Source: a virus. Taken from it: 64,000 nucleotides of DNA. The stretch is taken from positions 1-64,000 of IMG/VR virus record IMGVR_UViG_3300018080_000129. One strand, 5' to 3'. The notes beneath the pieces are model-generated. The model made no database searches. It saw only the letters and a list, made by a program, of their open reading frames with translations, and was not told where the DNA came from. The position numbers and the translations under genes were made by a program. The first letter of the stretch is position 1. Each line of letters starts with the position of its first letter. Below, in pieces: positions 11,518-46,887 of this stretch.

Positions 11518-12339
11518 TCAGTAATAAGAATCAAATTTTCTTTTGAAACCTCCCACTGAAATCTCATCCATGAAAAAAGGCCGCTTAAGTTCTTCTATTG
11601 GAAGGACATAGCAATCCATGTCCGCTATCAGTTCCCTTTCCTCGCCATTCTTGTCTTCATATTTATTCCCAAGCCGTTCACCCTTCTTCCTAAAAACTCC
11701 GTTCTGTTTCACATACTTCTTTGTCTGATAGCCAACACAATAGTATTTCAGTTCGCCTATGACTCTATCAGACAAGCGAAAGTTCAAATTTGCACAGAAC
11801 TCTTCGAACTCATCTTGAACATTCTTCGGACAGTGCAGTGAAAAAAAGCAGTAGTAATTCGGATAACCAAGCTCATCACTCCAATCATAGTTAGCAAACT
11901 CGACAGTAGCATCATAATGCAACAGAGGATGGTAGTTTCGTATTTTGGATTTCACATCTATCGTGGTTACATTTTGGCCGTGTGTCAAAAAATCATAAGG
12001 CCAAACTCCATCCCGAAAATGCGGAGAAAACACTCCCTCAAACAATTTCCCAAAGGCTGTTTCGCCGAGATGCCCATGATACGTGTGTGTCAGGGAATAG
12101 AAGCGACCTTGTTGCTCATTCTTTATTGAACGAGTCGCCTCACTCAGAGATTTTTCCCCTTTCAAAATCTTGAACATATACTTTCTGGTATGCTCCAGCA
12201 TCTCTCTGGACAAATATACTTCTATGTAACGTTCCTTCTCTCTGACATCATAGCCGTGAGTTTTCTCCCTCTGAAGACGCCTTCTCTCGTGAGAGAGTAG
12301 CTTTGTTCTGTACGGTGCTCCTGCCGAAATTCTACTCAT
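11518..12339 (-). CDS. PD-(D/E)XK nuclease-like protein coupled to a DNA methyltransferase
   Basis: 273 residues from ATG 12339, overlapping the methyltransferase stop as ATGA. The core matches a PD-(D/E)XK nuclease: E93 in HLGETAF, D116 in PYDF, and the D-x-K pair D128/K130 in TIDVKSK. After it come beta strands and a helical C-terminal part. Translational coupling to a DNA methyltransferase suggests a restriction-modification-like pair, but fold and function are inferred from motifs only. It could also be a phage recombination or degradation nuclease. Confidence 0.65.
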   Translation of the reverse strand: MSRISAGAPYRTKLLSHERRRLQREKTHGYDVREKERYIEVYLSREMLEHTRKYMFKILKGEKSLSEATRSIKNEQQGRFYSLTHTYHGHLGETAFGKLFEGVFSPHFRDGVWPYDFLTHGQNVTTIDVKSKIRNYHPLLHYDATVEFANYDWSDELGYPNYYCFFSLHCPKNVQDEFEEFCANLNFRLSDRVIGELKYYCVGYQTKKYVKQNGVFRKKGERLGNKYEDKNGEERELIADMDCYVLPIEELKRPFFMDEISVGGFKRKFDSYY

Positions 12340-13496
12340 GGTGTCATTCTTCCTTTCTTTCGCCAAATCATCAAAGGTTCTGCGAATACTCCTCCCTTGT
12401 CTGCCTTGCTCATCGGCCTCTTTGCCAATCTCAAACCCCAAGTTGAGATATACTTCATGCCTCGAATCGTAGAAGCGTATTCAAAGAGAGGGTCACACAA
12501 TCTGTTTATCGTGTGGTTGCAATAAACATCACTGAGATTGATGACTATGACGCCTCCCATTTTCAGAGAACAACATGCCTTGTGAAAAACAGGAAAAAGA
12601 AACTTTGAAAGCCAGTCTTCCACCTTTTTGTACCGCTGCCAAGATTGATTGTCTTCCTGCGTGTATCTTTCGATGATGAAGTAAGGCGGCGAAGTGAAAA
12701 CCACGTCAAACGCCCTTTTGGGAAAATCAACCTCTTCCGCAGGCGCATTGATAATCTCAATCTTCTTCCCGTGACCGAAGATTTTTTTCTGACGCTCATA
12801 ATCCGCAAAAAGGTTCTCATTCGGGTCGCAACCGAAATAGGACACTGTAGAAGATGTTGCCATGAAAGCCGTCAACCTATCGCCCCAACCCGTGCTGAAA
12901 TCCAGCACTTTCTTGGCATCAAAATGTTGATACACGGCCTTGGCCGCAGAAGGACGAAATTGCGCAGCAATGTACTTTCTCAGTCCGATAGCGGAACGAA
13001 AAACCTTCTTGTTTATGCTCTTGAATTTGAGAGTCCAAAGAGCATTAAGAAGAGACATCTGGAACTTCTTTATCGTCCATGAGCGATAAGGACTCGGACT
13101 GTTAATCGAATCACACCGCCAACGATTCTTCTGATGAAAGAAATCCGAACTCCTGTTCCCGACATTGTTGATGGCAATATATTTTGGGTGCATAGGAAAA
13201 CCGTAATCGTACCGCGTGAAATATTCACCTTTCTGAATCAACGGGATGCAATCCATGTTTCTCAACCTCTCAAAATCAAGAATGGCATCCTCAAGCAAAA
13301 TCTCCCTGTAAGGAAGAGGAACTCCATGCTCAAGAATCAAACGAGAAATCAACTCCTTAATAGTTTTTTTACTCAAAAACCTGTTAAGCTTTTTCCAGTG
13401 GTTCTCTTCAATTCGAATCTCTCCATTCTTCAGAAAATGCTTAGGAAACCAGAAAGAATCAAACTCCTCAAGGGCAATTACCGGAAGCCTCGTCAT
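12336..13496 (-). CDS. DNA amino-methyltransferase (TSPPY type)
   Basis: 386 residues. The SAM motif I is VLDFSTGWGDRL (about 197-208) and the catalytic motif IV is VFTSPPYF (about 266-273), typical of N6-adenine or N4-cytosine DNA methyltransferases. FRPSAAKAVY precedes motif I and is shared with the C-terminal domain of the fusion protein at 41419-43419. The first 170 residues are unassigned and may read the target. The next gene encodes a candidate nuclease overlapping by ATGA. The site modified is unknown. Confidence 0.85.
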   Translation of the reverse strand: MTRLPVIALEEFDSFWFPKHFLKNGEIRIEENHWKKLNRFLSKKTIKELISRLILEHGVPLPYREILLEDAILDFERLRNMDCIPLIQKGEYFTRYDYGFPMHPKYIAINNVGNRSSDFFHQKNRWRCDSINSPSPYRSWTIKKFQMSLLNALWTLKFKSINKKVFRSAIGLRKYIAAQFRPSAAKAVYQHFDAKKVLDFSTGWGDRLTAFMATSSTVSYFGCDPNENLFADYERQKKIFGHGKKIEIINAPAEEVDFPKRAFDVVFTSPPYFIIERYTQEDNQSWQRYKKVEDWLSKFLFPVFHKACCSLKMGGVIVINLSDVYCNHTINRLCDPLFEYASTIRGMKYISTWGLRLAKRPMSKADKGGVFAEPLMIWRKKGRMTP

Positions 13497-41418: not shown

Positions 41419-43419
41419 CTACTTCCGAAAGACGTGAATCGGCTCGTGTTTGAAAGACTTTGAGTAAGGAGATGAAAGTTTCATAAGATGAGTACAAAAA
41501 AGCTGTAAACCTATACCTTTAATGTATTTAAGGAGGTCATCAGAGATTGGATAATGCTTTTTGTCTATTCTGATGTTTGCCACGTTGAGAACCAGATAAG
41601 CACCCTTCCTGAGCAGGTCAAAAGATTTTCTTACCAGCACGAAAAAGAACTTCTCCAACCATTCTTCGTAAGTCTCATATCGCACATCACTGAGCTTCTC
41701 ATCCGTGCCATAAATCTCTTTGCAAAAATACGGAGGAGAAGTAAATACGAGGTCAAATTCCTGCTCCTTTTTCCAGTCTTCAAAGGAGGCATAGACTATC
41801 TTTGCATCTTTCCCTTCGATGTCCCTGCTTAGGATATTCCTCATGTGCTTCAGACCAGCAACAGTATCCGCGTTGGCATCTATACCTACATACGATTTGG
41901 CTTTCTCTGATACAAAGAAGCCAAGCAATCTTCCTCCATAACCACTGCAAGGGTCAAGCACACTGCCGCCATCCGTACAATAAGTATCATAGACTGCCTT
42001 CGCAATTGCAGGACGAAAGGTATGAACTCCCCCACAAATTTGGAGTTCCGCTCTCAAGGCAGCATCCGAAACCGATTGTCTATATTTGATGCAATCTTTG
42101 ATGATGTGTTTCAATCTATTACGATTTCGAAAGACCTGATATGGACTCTGCCCACCCTTCCTCCTTGCCTTCCAAAACTCCGAAAAGTTCGAAACACAGT
42201 AACTGCTTCCCTGCGTATGACCGACTGGCACTTCATCCTCCAGTTTCAGAACTGAACTCTTCAAGGCTCCTATTTCCTTCAATCGTTTCTTTTTCTTGTA
42301 GACAGGATATGGAAAACCCGCTATCTGCCAGTAATCCACAAGGTCATCAATCTGTTTCTCCTTTTCTTCTTCACTCAAAAGAACATGCCTGCTAACGCTA
42401 AAATCCTTCAACACTGTAGCCAATGCCGGTCGAGAAAAGTGAGGAAGCCCAAAACGCAAGCTCAATGGAATTTTGTATGACATGGAAGGATGAACATGTT
42501 TTCCGATAACGGAAAAAAATCTGTCTTTGTTGTGAATCCAGAGAATCGTTATGTTATCTTCTGGTCTTGGACGACATTCAATATCCAGAGAGAAACGCTC
42601 GTTTAGCACATCGGCAATGGCTTCATAATCAGTAAAACATGTAGCCAACGTGAAAACTCCATCCAATGTTGCGTCAGCAAGATGTCCATCGTCCATATAC
42701 CAGACAGCCAAAGAAAGAGGAGTAAGTGTTTCTATCAAGCCTTCCGGTAGTTTCTTTTTGCCATCAGAGTAAAAGGAATGATAGAGTGCTACAAAGACAG
42801 GATGAAAATGGCAACGCAGAGACACACCCTTGGCTACTCGACCATCCTTCAAAATCTTTCCTTCTCTGCCAATCTTTCTTGAGAAAGGATGAAGAACCGA
42901 CTGTTTCCAGCAAAGATACTCTCTTTGCTCCGTAGAATGCGATTCTGAATATCGAGCGGAATCACCTGCCTTGTTCAAAGAAATGCACCCATCTCCCAAA
43001 AGAGAACCCATCAAAACTTCTTTCTGCGCCTGCGTCAGTTCAGAAGGCAGTGATGACCGTTGTCTTGAAGCTTTGCTTATTGGAGCAATTCCAAAATCCT
43101 GTCTCATTCGCCTAATCAGTATTTTACTGCATCCGAACAACTTCGCAAGTTTTCTTTCTCCATCCTTTCGATAAAGCTCCCCAAATTCCTCTGCTGACAC
43201 TTCTCTGATGTCTCTTAAACCCTTCAGCTTTGCTCGTCCTGCAACTCTATCCACAGACTTCATCGTCTGGATACCATACTTCTTCCTGAAATAAGCTACG
43301 CCCTCGCCAGTCAAGCCAAATCTCTTGCCAATCTCGCTGTCACTGAGGAAAAGCTCCAGATAGAGATGCCGAATGGTCTCTTCGTCCAGTCCATGTTCCT
43401 TGTGCGTCAACCTGCCCAT
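41419..43419 (-). CDS. HTH-LAGLIDADG endonuclease fused to a DNA methyltransferase (666 aa)
   Basis: Two helix-turn-helix-like segments (about 10-50 and 76-112) precede a two-motif LAGLIDADG endonuclease: VLMGSLLGDG (135-144) and LAVWYMDDG (237-245), spaced as in a monomeric enzyme. Residues about 356-666 are a DNA amino-methyltransferase: VDYWQIAGFPYPVY, FRPAIAKAVY, motif I VLDPCSGYGGRLLG and motif IV VFTSPPYF (558-565). There are no intein splice blocks, so this looks like one multidomain protein. It is a paralogue of the methyltransferase at 12336-13496. It has its own promoter and sits between two head/tail operons, like a moron. Confidence 0.9.
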   Translation of the reverse strand: MGRLTHKEHGLDEETIRHLYLELFLSDSEIGKRFGLTGEGVAYFRKKYGIQTMKSVDRVAGRAKLKGLRDIREVSAEEFGELYRKDGERKLAKLFGCSKILIRRMRQDFGIAPISKASRQRSSLPSELTQAQKEVLMGSLLGDGCISLNKAGDSARYSESHSTEQREYLCWKQSVLHPFSRKIGREGKILKDGRVAKGVSLRCHFHPVFVALYHSFYSDGKKKLPEGLIETLTPLSLAVWYMDDGHLADATLDGVFTLATCFTDYEAIADVLNERFSLDIECRPRPEDNITILWIHNKDRFFSVIGKHVHPSMSYKIPLSLRFGLPHFSRPALATVLKDFSVSRHVLLSEEEKEKQIDDLVDYWQIAGFPYPVYKKKKRLKEIGALKSSVLKLEDEVPVGHTQGSSYCVSNFSEFWKARRKGGQSPYQVFRNRNRLKHIIKDCIKYRQSVSDAALRAELQICGGVHTFRPAIAKAVYDTYCTDGGSVLDPCSGYGGRLLGFFVSEKAKSYVGIDANADTVAGLKHMRNILSRDIEGKDAKIVYASFEDWKKEQEFDLVFTSPPYFCKEIYGTDEKLSDVRYETYEEWLEKFFFVLVRKSFDLLRKGAYLVLNVANIRIDKKHYPISDDLLKYIKGIGLQLFCTHLMKLSSPYSKSFKHEPIHVFRK

Positions 43420-43452
43420 AATTGACCTTTCCTGAATATGTTACGCTATCAT

Positions 43453-43481
43453 ATTATACTCTGAAACCATAGAAAAGTCAA
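43453..43481 (-). promoter_or_regulatory. Consensus sigma-70 promoter for the nuclease-methyltransferase gene
   Basis: TTGACT, 17 bases, TATAAT on the minus strand. It lacks the AATTCTTTTATATT block of the other phage promoters. It lies after the capsid terminator and 34 bases before the ATG of 41419-43419. Confidence 0.88.
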
Positions 43482-43539: not shown

Positions 43540-43577
43540 AAAAAAAGAACTCCCCAAGATTTCTCTTGAGGAGTTCT
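43540..43577 (-). terminator. Intrinsic terminator after the major capsid gene
   Basis: Minus strand stem AGAACTCCTCAAGA../..TCTTGGGGAGTTCT followed by a run of T. Ends the head operon. Confidence 0.93.
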
Positions 43578-43632: not shown

Positions 43633-44487
43633 TTATACGCGAGTAATTACAAGTCTCTGAAGAGCGTATGGGTTGTACGCCCCAATCCCAAGATTCTCAA
43701 AGATTGAGAACCCGATGAGACGGTTTTTCGGGTCATCCGCAGACAGAACCGTAAGCTCGGTTCTGACAGGAATGCGTCCGAAGAATTCCGGCTCACCGCA
43801 GACGTACACGGTTCCCTCAGTGACGATACGCGAAACAATGAGCTTCGCGCCCCACAGAGTTGCCATCAAGCCAGTTTTCAGCAAGCTGGCCTGCGTCTCG
43901 ATGTCCAAGGTATCTCTGTCCCACTTACGCAGGTCAGCATAGTCCTTGGCATTCATAAAGACGTTGGCGACTCTCATGTCAGTGCGCTCGACGTTCGCGA
44001 AAGCGTCGGCCAGCGCATTGGCCGTGAGGTTGCCCGTTACCGGAATGTCGGGATTCGGGTTAGTGGGGTCAGCCGCCAGTGCATCCATGACGGCAAAAAC
44101 CTTGCGGTCTTCTTCAGCCTGAATTTCGCTCTTAGCAAGGTCAACGCTTCTCTCGATGAGGTCGAACCGACGAGCCTTGATTTCCGTCAACTGGATTTCA
44201 GGGTTCGAGGCAACTTCAAAGAGCGGGAACAGAACTCTCTTTGGCTTTGCGACTGCGACAATGTTTTCACCCTCTTCACCGACCACATAGGCCGTGATGT
44301 TCGGGTCTTTGTCGTAAATCGGCAGTGCGCCATCGGGAAGCTGTTCGACGTAGAACGCTTTGCGTCCTACGGAAGTGTAGTCCCTGCGCCGACGCAAAGG
44401 CTGAATCATGGAGGCCGCAAGACGCTGCCTACCAGCGGCAGTCTTGATGAACTGACTGATAATCTCCTGCTTCGTCTGATTATCCAT
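43633..44487 (-). CDS. Probable major capsid protein (284 aa)
   Basis: Starts MDNQTKQEIISQFIKTAAG. It contains RRRRDYTSVGRKAFYVEQLP, VEVASNPEIQLTEIKARRFD-like spine-helix sequence, and the C-terminal AYNPYALQRLVITRV. Length, position last in the head operon before a strong terminator, and preceding scaffold-like and decoration-like genes fit an HK97-fold major capsid protein, of a type seen in several large phages. The start is set by the capsid-type N-terminus and spacing. Confidence 0.8.
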   Translation of the reverse strand: MDNQTKQEIISQFIKTAAGRQRLAASMIQPLRRRRDYTSVGRKAFYVEQLPDGALPIYDKDPNITAYVVGEEGENIVAVAKPKRVLFPLFEVASNPEIQLTEIKARRFDLIERSVDLAKSEIQAEEDRKVFAVMDALAADPTNPNPDIPVTGNLTANALADAFANVERTDMRVANVFMNAKDYADLRKWDRDTLDIETQASLLKTGLMATLWGAKLIVSRIVTEGTVYVCGEPEFFGRIPVRTELTVLSADDPKNRLIGFSIFENLGIGAYNPYALQRLVITRV

Positions 44488-45088: not shown

Positions 45089-46210
45089 TTACTTGAAGAC
45101 CGAACTCACGTCAGGAGCATCATCCCAAATCTTGCTAATGTCATTGGTGGACATATCGCTGGCAACCTTGACCTGCCCGCCGAGTGACTTAACGCCTTGT
45201 TTCTTTGCAGCCTTTTTGGACTTCTTGGAAGACATTTTGGTATTCTGGTTTTCGTCCTGCGCCTTTTCTTCTTCCTCATCCTGCGCCTTTTCTTCTTCCT
45301 CGTCCTGAGCCGTTTCTTCCTCTTCATCCTGCGAGAAGAGCTTGCCCAAGAGTTTTTCGGATTCGCTGCTGATTTCCTCGCTGCCTTCGGTGATGGAGTT
45401 AAGCTCGATGTCCATATCTACGCTGCTTTTCTTTTCTTCCTCTTCCTGAGCTTCTTCCCCAACATCCTCGTCCTTTTCAACAGCTTCGTCTTCGTCCTGA
45501 GACTTCTTCTTGGACGCTTCCTTCTTCTCTTCTTCGTCCTGAGCAGTCTCTTCTTCCTTCTTCTCTTCTTCATCCTGCGCGGTTTCTTCCTTCTTCTCTT
45601 CTTCGTCCTGAGCAGTCTCTTCTTCCTTCTTCTCTTCTTCGTCCTGAGACTTCTTGGACTTCACGCAGGCTTCTTCATCCTTATCTTCTTCATCTTGAGC
45701 GGTCTCTTCCTTCTTTTCCTCTTCGTCCTGCGCGGTTTCTTCCTTCTTCTCTTCTTCGTCCTGAGCAGTCTCTTCTTCCTTCTTCTCTTCTTCGTCCTGA
45801 GCCGTCTCTTCCTCTTCATCCTGCGAGTAGACGGTTTCGGTTTCAGAGAAGCGTTCCAGCGACTCATTCAGGCCTTTGTTGCCAAGCTTCATAAAGGTAC
45901 GGGCTTGGGCTTCGATAACGTCCTCATCCACCTTATCGCCAAGCAGCAGCACAGCCAGACGTACAGCCTTGGAAGCCGCAGCGCGAATGCTGGCGACGGT
46001 CGGAATACCAAAGCCGATTTCGTCGCGCTTTTCATTCTTCCACTCGTGACGCATGTCGGGGAGCGGATGATTCACGACTTCTTCCCAATTGTCATATTGG
46101 TCACGTTTTTTGAATTTGCGACCGGGCTGATTAACAGTGCCGGGATAAGGAGTGTCGTCTTCGACGGCTCTTCTACGCCGTCTCTGTGTCAGTCTGACTC
46201 TTCTTCCCAT
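45089..46210 (-). CDS. Acidic QDE-repeat protein, probable scaffold/prohead core (373 aa)
   Basis: ATG 46210 (MGRRVRLTQRRRRRAVEDD). The basic N-terminus and a short ordered segment (about 50-125) are followed by roughly 150 residues of tandem TAQDEEEKKEE units with about 14 QDE cores, then a second acidic stretch and a Lys-rich C-terminus. Extreme charge, low complexity and position beside the capsid gene fit a scaffold. Each QDE is preceded by Ala or Ser, similar to the small-x-Glu cleavage motif of phiKZ-type prohead proteases (inference). Confidence 0.7.
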   Translation of the reverse strand: MGRRVRLTQRRRRRAVEDDTPYPGTVNQPGRKFKKRDQYDNWEEVVNHPLPDMRHEWKNEKRDEIGFGIPTVASIRAAASKAVRLAVLLLGDKVDEDVIEAQARTFMKLGNKGLNESLERFSETETVYSQDEEEETAQDEEEKKEEETAQDEEEKKEETAQDEEEKKEETAQDEEDKDEEACVKSKKSQDEEEKKEEETAQDEEEKKEETAQDEEEKKEEETAQDEEEKKEASKKKSQDEDEAVEKDEDVGEEAQEEEEKKSSVDMDIELNSITEGSEEISSESEKLLGKLFSQDEEEETAQDEEEEKAQDEEEEKAQDENQNTKMSSKKSKKAAKKQGVKSLGGQVKVASDMSTNDISKIWDDAPDVSSVFK

Positions 46211-46242
46211 TATCCAATCTCCTTTCACAAGAAACGAGTGTC

Positions 46243-46887
46243 CTACTTCCTCAGGCCGATACTCTTATCCAGAGCATCCGACAGTCTATCAATACGCAAA
46301 GCCAGCCGCTTGTCGCCTTTCTTCTCAAGATAGTCGGCAACTCTGTCCAGCCGTTGCGTGGCAACTTTGACACGGGCCACGAAAGCGTTTTTCGGCTCAA
46401 CGGTTTTCACCTTGGAGCCTGCCGCTTCTTCAACCTCATCGAGATAATCTTGAGTGATTTGGTCTTCAACACCGGGGGATTTTTCGCTGCTGCGCGTCTT
46501 GCGACGTTTTGCGGCTCTGTTCCGTGCGCTACTGATGATGTCTTCAGCTTCTTCCTCATCCTCGACTTCTTCAAGCTCTTGGCTAAGCTCTTCAATCTGA
46601 GAAACCAAGTCTTCGTCCTGACCGACTTCAATCTCTTCCTCTTCTTCGAATTCTTCGTCCTGCGCCTTGATTTCTTCCTCTTCGTCTTGGCCTAATTCGA
46701 TTTCGTCTTCCTCTTCTTCAAGTTCTTCGTCCTGTGCCGTGATTTCTTCCTCTTCTTCTTCTTGAGCCTCAAGTTCTTCTTCTTCGTCGTCTTGTGAGAG
46801 CCTTTTTTCCATTGCCTTGATTTCATGCAGCAGGGAGTCACGCTCATCTTCGTAACTCTCGGTGCTTCTCCGTCTTCTCGGTCTCAT
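46243..46887 (-). CDS. Acidic QDE-repeat protein 2, probable scaffold (214 aa)
   Basis: Starts MRPRRRRSTESYEDERDSLL. It has a basic head, an acidic middle with SQDD, TAQDEE, GQDEEE, KAQDEE and GQDEDL, then an ordered, helical C-terminal domain (AFVARVKVATQRLDRVADYL). Same design as the next gene, so the two are probably paralogues or partners in the prohead core. First gene after a phage-type promoter. Confidence 0.7.
   Translation of the reverse strand: MRPRRRRSTESYEDERDSLLHEIKAMEKRLSQDDEEEELEAQEEEEEEITAQDEELEEEEDEIELGQDEEEEIKAQDEEFEEEEEIEVGQDEDLVSQIEELSQELEEVEDEEEAEDIISSARNRAAKRRKTRSSEKSPGVEDQITQDYLDEVEEAAGSKVKTVEPKNAFVARVKVATQRLDRVADYLEKKGDKRLALRIDRLSDALDKSIGLRK

What the first reader, a model, noticed from the sequence alone, without database searches (positions are those of the whole stretch)
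41419..43481. Single protein joining a LAGLIDADG endonuclease to a DNA methyltransferase, in a moron-like cassette
The 666-residue product has HTH segments, two intact LAGLIDADG motifs with acidic catalytic residues (DG in both) and, in the same chain, a complete amino-methyltransferase (motif I DPCSGYGGRL, motif IV TSPPYF). No intein blocks are seen. The gene has its own TTGACT-17-TATAAT promoter, lies after a strong terminator, and a phage-type promoter follows it. Established: homing endonucleases spread by cutting unmarked sites; methyltransferases can protect sites. Inference: it could act as a self-protecting cutter that homes into, or restricts, rival phage DNA.
Basis: partly seen in the sequence, partly recalled or inferred. 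Interest (0 to 1): 0.85.

Follow-up and report, generated by a model that had tools for sequence, protein, structure and literature searches.

The report
Capsid-gene-linked homing nuclease fused to methyltransferase
This phage gene makes one protein that joins a DNA-cutting "homing" enzyme to a DNA-marking enzyme, and about fifty different versions, plus versions with unrelated cutting domains, sit directly behind an essential phage structural gene, which suggests a selfish gene that marks its own DNA so that it cuts only rivals lacking the mark.

Summary
One intact 666-codon gene (41419-43419, minus strand) encodes HTH modules, an I-SceI-like LAGLIDADG nuclease and a class-I amino-methyltransferase, each with its active-site motifs. 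It has its own promoter-like sequence behind a terminator. It is not a frameshift artefact or an intein.

The gene belongs to a large, unnamed phage family. I found 50 distinct single-chain LAGLIDADG-methyltransferase fusions; 47 start within 500 bp downstream of a major capsid protein (MCP) gene, although the search did not ask for one. Both active sites are conserved, and dN/dS is 0.03-0.13. At the same site the same methyltransferase family is also fused to EDxHD-type and PD-(D/E)XK-like nucleases. Elsewhere it is fused to a PD-(D/E)XK homing nuclease behind tail-sheath genes, and to HNH. Methyltransferase trees reject a single origin. Cassettes turn over quickly: MCPs 98% identical carry fusions 29% identical.

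Best reading: self-protecting free-standing homing endonucleases. The nuclease targets the neighbouring structural gene or its flank in unmarked genomes, and the fused methyltransferase protects the element's own copy, which insertion does not destroy. Domain identity, conservation and location are shown. Cleavage, methylation, a shared target and homing are inferred. The open papers searched describe no LAGLIDADG-methyltransferase fusion.

The parts
41419..43419 (-). LAGLIDADG nuclease - methyltransferase fusion gene, 666 aa
43240..43401 (-). first HTH module (residues 7-60), 50-62% identical to the C-terminal HTH of four EDxHD elements (L024, L046, L048, L072) and to an internal HTH of L080, all at the same site
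43057..43194 (-). second HTH module (residues 76-121)
42451..43050 (-). LAGLIDADG (I-SceI-like) nuclease domain, residues 124-323; D143 and D243/D244 invariant in 36 aligned fusions
41980..42402 (-). helical N-terminal part of the methyltransferase module (residues 340-480), conserved in stand-alone and fused relatives
41500..42093 (-). class-I amino-methyltransferase domain (residues 443-640), DPCSGYGGR and TSPPYF
43453..43481 (-). promoter-like site TTGACT-17-TATAAT of the fusion gene
   Evidence: consensus match only
43546..43577 (-). terminator-like hairpin between the capsid gene and the fusion gene
43633..44487 (-). major capsid protein gene, the conserved neighbour and presumed target locus
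   Evidence: phrog_2522, E 1.4e-53

Best explanation
The gene is a free-standing homing element specialised for the position behind the major capsid gene. The HTH modules and the LAGLIDADG domain recognise a long site in or beside the capsid gene. In a co-infecting related genome that lacks the element and its mark, the nuclease cuts there, and repair copies the element (or at least the capsid locus) from the cutter's genome. The element lies beside its target and does not interrupt it, so its own genome would keep the cut site. The fused methyltransferase (TSPPY motif, probably N4-cytosine) modifies that site, and the mark travels in packaged DNA. Shown here: domain identity, intact and constrained active sites, fixed location, rapid turnover at that location, and repeated independent nuclease-methyltransferase pairings. 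Inferred: target sequence, cleavage, methylation, protection and homing.
For: 1) A scan with the fusion alone gave 50 distinct LAGLIDADG-methyltransferase ORFs; 47 start within 500 bp behind an MCP gene on the same strand and one at 1155 bp. 2) Positional control in an MCP-chosen sample: nuclease/methyltransferase domains occupy the first kb downstream in 22/56 loci, against 0/34 to 2/71 per kb upstream. 3) 24 of 44 distinct MCP loci carry such an element, of several domain make-ups, and 20 carry none. State changes on the MCP tree number 29, with at least 9 forced for this class. 4) MCPs 98% and 96% identical carry fusions 29% identical (L189/L214, L192/L237). 5) Motif I and the LAGLIDADG acidic residues are invariant in 36 fusions and TSPPY is at least 90% conserved; dN/dS is 0.03-0.13 in both domains. 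6) The same methyltransferase family is fused to EDxHD (rank-1 structural match I-Bth0305I), PD-(D/E)XK-like and HNH nucleases, and one origin of the LAGLIDADG-fused methyltransferases is rejected (AU p 7e-7). 7) The window's HTH module is 58-62% identical to the C-terminal HTH of EDxHD elements at the same site. 8) The MCP gene is itself a homing target: in L075 it is split by group I intron sequence with LAGLIDADG ORFs and no methyltransferase. 9) A second class sits 44-107 bp behind tail-sheath-like genes in all eight loci checked.
Against: Many EDxHD-only (10 of 44) and some LAGLIDADG-only elements persist at the same site without a methyltransferase, so methylation is not indispensable. 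The one near-clean occupied/empty pair (L048/L050) looks like loss by deletion, because the empty genome keeps the tail of a gene lying inside the occupied stretch. No clean empty site was found for the LAGLIDADG-methyltransferase class. Fusion and MCP identities correlate partly (r 0.36), so part of the descent is vertical. No separate target-recognition domain was identified, so a shared target of the two activities is assumed.
Confidence: 0.58

Rival explanations
1. Interference weapon. The fusion cuts the capsid gene of co-infecting rival phages and eliminates them, as the intron endonuclease gp210 of phage PhiPA3 does to PhiKZ, and the methyltransferase only protects self. Homing is incidental or absent.
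For: An essential structural gene as the presumed target, strong constraint on both activities, and the precedent of interference competition by a homing endonuclease in jumbo phages (PMC11620839).
Against: Rapid replacement at one fixed site, nested or tandem elements (L070, L002) and repeated swaps between nearly identical MCP backgrounds point to mobility of the cassette itself.
Confidence: 0.2
2. A phage-borne Type IIC/IIG-like restriction-modification enzyme with a short recognition site, acting on any unmodified invading or host DNA.
For: N-terminal nuclease plus C-terminal amino-methyltransferase in one chain, the Type IIC layout (PMC4081073).
Against: LAGLIDADG and HTH modules suit long rare sites. 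General restriction does not explain the fixed place behind MCP genes or tail-sheath genes. No Type II target-recognition domain was recognised.
Confidence: 0.1
3. The LAGLIDADG part serves only to guide the methyltransferase, a targeted epigenetic regulator of late genes.
For: LAGLIDADG proteins can lose cleavage and keep DNA binding (own knowledge); location beside a late structural gene.
Against: Both catalytic acidic motifs are kept in nearly all of 50 fusions, and the nuclease is exchanged for unrelated nucleases, not for plain DNA-binding domains.
Confidence: 0.06
4. An ordinary vertically inherited phage gene with a role linked to the capsid, with frequent loss.
For: Constant synteny with MCP and partial correlation of fusion and MCP identity (r 0.36).
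Against: Polyphyletic methyltransferases, 29%-identical fusions beside 98%-identical MCPs, and different nuclease types at the site on closely related MCP backgrounds.
Confidence: 0.06

Closest known systems
I-SceI and free-standing phage LAGLIDADG homing endonucleases (LAGLIDADG_2, PF03161; phrog_11023)
   Same: Same fold, two-motif single-chain LAGLIDADG with both acidic residues; free-standing gene beside a conserved phage gene.
   Different: A DNA methyltransferase is fused to the C-terminus and HTH modules to the N-terminus.
Type IIC/IIG restriction-modification enzymes (MmeI, Eco57I, BpuSI; PMC4081073, PMC3817140)
   Same: N-terminal nuclease and C-terminal amino-methyltransferase with motif I before motif IV in one chain.
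   Different: LAGLIDADG in place of PD-(D/E)XK in this class, TSPPY in place of NPPY, no recognised C-terminal target-recognition domain, and a fixed place behind one phage gene.
GIY-YIG nuclease fused to COG4123 methyltransferase in Lactobacillales (PMC1564403)
   Same: A nuclease of a type used by homing endonucleases, joined to an N-methyltransferase and proposed to act like restriction-modification.
   Different: Other nuclease fold (Slx1-like), methyltransferase at the N-terminus, cellular genomes, no hotspot.
ShiLan element and inteins inside actinophage methylase genes (PMC11855218, PMC9957025)
   Same: A homing endonuclease and a phage DNA methylase occur in one locus.
   Different: There the methylase is the invaded gene. 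Here the nuclease lies N-terminal to an uninterrupted methyltransferase, and the locus is that of the capsid gene.
gp210 intron endonuclease of jumbo phage PhiPA3 (PMC11620839)
   Same: Homing nuclease that gives one phage an advantage in co-infection.
   Different: Intron-borne, no methyltransferase.

Membership tests
LAGLIDADG homing endonuclease | two LAGLIDADG motifs with catalytic acidic residues in the LAGLIDADG fold | tested here: met
LAGLIDADG homing endonuclease | cuts a long DNA site in alleles that lack the element, leading to its copying | not testable with these tools
   only indirect: location and turnover
Type IIC/IIG restriction-modification enzyme | nuclease and DNA-methyltransferase domains in one chain | tested here: met
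Type IIC/IIG restriction-modification enzyme | PD-(D/E)XK nuclease domain (majority layout) | tested here: not met
   the nuclease is LAGLIDADG
[quoted passage not shown]
   motif order I then IV as in gamma, but TSPPY in place of NPPY and no C-terminal recognition domain seen
Type IIC/IIG restriction-modification enzyme | shared short recognition site, cleavage stimulated by AdoMet | not testable with these tools
   needs biochemistry
Intein | Hint splicing blocks around the endonuclease, inserted inside a host protein | tested here: not met
   no Hint or intein family hit in Pfam or NCBIfam at E up to 1; nuclease lies N-terminal to a methyltransferase that aligns uninterrupted with differently fused relatives
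Group I intron-encoded endonuclease | gene inside a group I intron | tested here: not met
   Rfam finds only tRNAs in the window; the MCP is uninterrupted here; introns do occur in the MCP of L075

The most novel reading that the evidence does not exclude
A general class of self-marking homing elements: one methyltransferase family has been joined several times to unrelated homing nucleases (LAGLIDADG, EDxHD, two PD-(D/E)XK-like kinds, HNH), with most of these kinds bound to the 3' side of one essential virion gene (capsid or tail sheath). This would join restriction-modification and homing into a single type of selfish gene.
Probability: 0.5. Interest if true: 0.9.

Novelty: new variant of a known kind. 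Interest (0 to 1): 0.8.

Why it matters
Free-standing homing endonucleases that sit beside their target face a self-cutting problem, usually thought to be solved by target divergence. A fused methyltransferase would be a second solution, and would be a direct evolutionary bridge between homing endonucleases and single-chain restriction-modification enzymes. The family gives natural experiments: the same site with and without methyltransferase, one methyltransferase family with several nucleases, near-identical capsid genes with unrelated elements. These make the question testable at once. Site-specific marked cutters could also explain part of the exclusion between co-infecting large phages.

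Tried and rejected
Frameshift or two proteins: rejected, single ORF in about 50 homologues. Intein: rejected. Intron inside the window: none. LAGLIDADG remnant without catalytic residues: rejected for the window, where both acidic motifs are intact; the extra N-terminal LAGLIDADG unit of L013 does lack the first catalytic Asp. Single origin of the fusion: rejected for the methyltransferase part, with the caveat that methyltransferase swapping after one fusion gives the same picture. Sequence search of the EDxHD domain against PDB: nothing; the fold match to I-Bth0305I ranks first but only at E 0.07. Search for a conserved target-like block in MCP DNA: no run of 8 or more columns 90% identical, so no target proposed. 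Rfam at gathering threshold did not call the L072/L075 introns; a weaker but significant group I match appeared when the stretch was searched alone. Scan for more HNH-methyltransferase fusions: only the known one. Scan for more EDxHD-methyltransferase fusions: the same five plus pieces. Literature: no LAGLIDADG-methyltransferase fusion in the open library; subscription papers were not searched.

Full report
WHAT IS THERE. The window is bases 1-64000 of a 103.5-kb virus record. The ORF 41419-43419 on the minus strand is intact and encodes 666 residues. Two HTH modules (residues 7-121) are followed by a LAGLIDADG_2 domain (133-283, E 8.5e-27), related in sequence to I-SceI over 106-321, and a methyltransferase module (about 340-666). 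The methyltransferase hits phrog_12517 (E 9e-21) and more weakly DNA methyltransferase families. The AlphaFold model made with 36 relatives has mean pLDDT 91.6. Foldseek finds I-SceI first (TM on target 0.77-0.79) and then class-I methyltransferases. Among predicted viral proteins the best methyltransferase matches include giant-virus proteins labelled cytosine-N4 methyltransferases, and no listed match is named as holding both domains. The gene lies 213 bp behind the major capsid gene (phrog_2522). A 14-pair terminator-like hairpin lies between them, and an 11-of-12 sigma-70-like promoter precedes the gene. Its G+C is 43.5%, against 53.6% for the capsid gene.

IT IS A FAMILY, AND IT IS BOUND TO ONE SITE. 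The best relatives (44-50% identical) and a 1229-residue version in a 485-kb phage record all lie directly behind the homologous MCP gene. A scan with an alignment of six fusions, with no reference to the MCP, gave most of the 50 distinct single-ORF LAGLIDADG-methyltransferase fusions. Of these, 47 start within 500 bp downstream of an MCP gene on the same strand, one at 1155 bp, and two have no recognised MCP on the fetched piece. In the converse sample, chosen by MCP alone, nuclease or methyltransferase domains fill the first kilobase downstream of MCP in 22 of 56 loci, the second in 19 of 50, and upstream bins in 0/34, 0/38, 0/50, 2/58 and 2/71. Among 44 distinct such loci, 20 have no element, 10 have an EDxHD-type nuclease, 5 the LAGLIDADG-methyltransferase fusion, 5 an EDxHD-methyltransferase fusion, 2 a LAGLIDADG nuclease alone, 1 a PD-(D/E)XK-like fusion and 1 a methyltransferase fragment.

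BOTH ACTIVITIES ARE UNDER SELECTION. Across 36 fusions with a mean column identity of 31%, invariant columns include the LLGD aspartate (D143), the DDG of the second motif (D243-G245) and DPC.G.GGR of motif I; TSPPY is at least 90% conserved. dN/dS for two closely related pairs is 0.065 and 0.11 in the nuclease and 0.03 and 0.08 in the methyltransferase.

THE METHYLTRANSFERASE HAS BEEN PAIRED WITH UNRELATED NUCLEASES. At the same MCP site the methyltransferase is fused to an EDxHD-like nuclease (L015, L024, L035, L046, L080). The assignment rests on its motif, on a PHROG homing-endonuclease match and on a rank-1 but weak fold match to I-Bth0305I. In L092, L163 and L264, also behind the MCP, it follows zinc-ribbon and PD-(D/E)XK-like segments (by motif only). 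Elsewhere it is fused to another PD-(D/E)XK-like nuclease that matches phrog_9084 'homing endonuclease'. In all eight loci checked that form lies 44-107 bp behind homologous genes, one of which hits the tail-sheath family. In L100 it is fused to an HNH endonuclease (phrog_374, E 4.5e-105). A tree of the methyltransferase domains rejects a single clade of LAGLIDADG-fused members (AU p 7e-7). Repeated fusion, or swapping of the methyltransferase between elements, both fit. Many relatives in phages and genomes are not fused to a recognised nuclease, including a second copy in this phage at 12336-13496.

CASSETTES TURN OVER. On the MCP tree the content of the site changes at least 29 times. MCPs 98% (L189/L214) and 96% (L192/L237) identical carry fusions only 29% identical, while overall fusion and MCP identity correlate modestly (r 0.36). 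L070 carries this type followed directly by an EDxHD-methyltransferase gene. L002 carries it followed by a remnant 73% identical to the EDxHD-methyltransferase protein of L035. L217 has lost the methyltransferase. The HTH module at the start of the window protein is 58-62% identical to the C-terminal HTH of EDxHD elements L024, L046, L048 and L072, as expected if elements with different cutters share a target. The MCP gene is also a homing target in the classical sense: in L075 it is split by group I intron sequence with LAGLIDADG ORFs and no methyltransferase.

MECHANISM. The economical explanation is a homing endonuclease that sits beside its target. An intron or intein destroys the recognition site by inserting in it; a gene lying beside its target does not. 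A fused methyltransferase would remove the need for the target to diverge, and modified DNA would be packaged, so that an infecting genome is already marked. The anatomy is shown; the reactions are inferred. The layout resembles Type IIC/IIG restriction enzymes (PMC4081073), but the nuclease is LAGLIDADG, the motif is TSPPY (typical of N4-cytosine enzymes, from general knowledge), no separate recognition domain is seen, and the site-bound distribution is that of a homing element. Interference with rivals, shown for an intron-borne nuclease of a jumbo phage (PMC11620839), may be an added or alternative benefit.

LIMITS. Elements without methyltransferase persist at the same site, so the methyltransferase is not indispensable. 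The only near-clean occupied/empty pair (L048/L050) concerns an EDxHD element and looks like deletion. No target sequence could be proposed. All loci come from metagenomic or deposited contigs, and the loci fetched by fusion similarity are not an unbiased sample of prevalence.

NOVELTY. The open-access searches found no description of LAGLIDADG-methyltransferase fusions. The nearest are a GIY-YIG-methyltransferase fusion proposed as a restriction system (PMC1564403) and homing elements that insert into methylase genes (PMC11855218, PMC9957025; abstracts seen). Only one of 50,697 phage records covers the fusion at 80% or more, and it is unannotated. I file it as a new variant of homing endonuclease, with a real chance that the wider set deserves a class of its own.

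Noticed in passing
window 12336-13496 (-): A stand-alone methyltransferase of the same family as the fused one, 33% identical to it; its nearest relatives are phage stand-alone enzymes.
   Followed up: partly
window 478-22786 (-): 29 tRNA genes covering most amino acids lie in the first 23 kb.
   Followed up: no
window 45089-46887 (-): Two neighbouring ORFs upstream of the capsid gene are rich in repeated acidic segments (AQDEEEEK-like).
   Followed up: no
L075:3790-5990 and L072:1490-2612: The capsid gene is split after residue 27 by insert(s) with LAGLIDADG ORFs; one L075 insert matches the group I intron model (E 2.4e-6) below the curated cut-off.
   Followed up: partly
L098, L140, L150, L234, L236, L242, L244, L246: HTH/zinc-finger + PD-(D/E)XK-like homing nuclease + the same methyltransferase, always 44-107 bp behind homologous tail-sheath-like genes.
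   Followed up: partly
L100:3849-5996: HNH endonuclease fused to the same methyltransferase family; only example found.
   Followed up: partly
L089:6972-8630: LAGLIDADG nuclease fused to HTH and ParB N-terminal domain, also directly behind the capsid gene.
   Followed up: no
L080:6996-10166: 1056-residue chimera: EDxHD domain, a degenerate first methyltransferase, zinc and HTH segments, then an intact second methyltransferase of the window type.
   Followed up: no
L013:5140-8829 and L184:4839-8639: Fusions with two LAGLIDADG units in one chain; in L013 the first unit has lost its first catalytic Asp.
   Followed up: no
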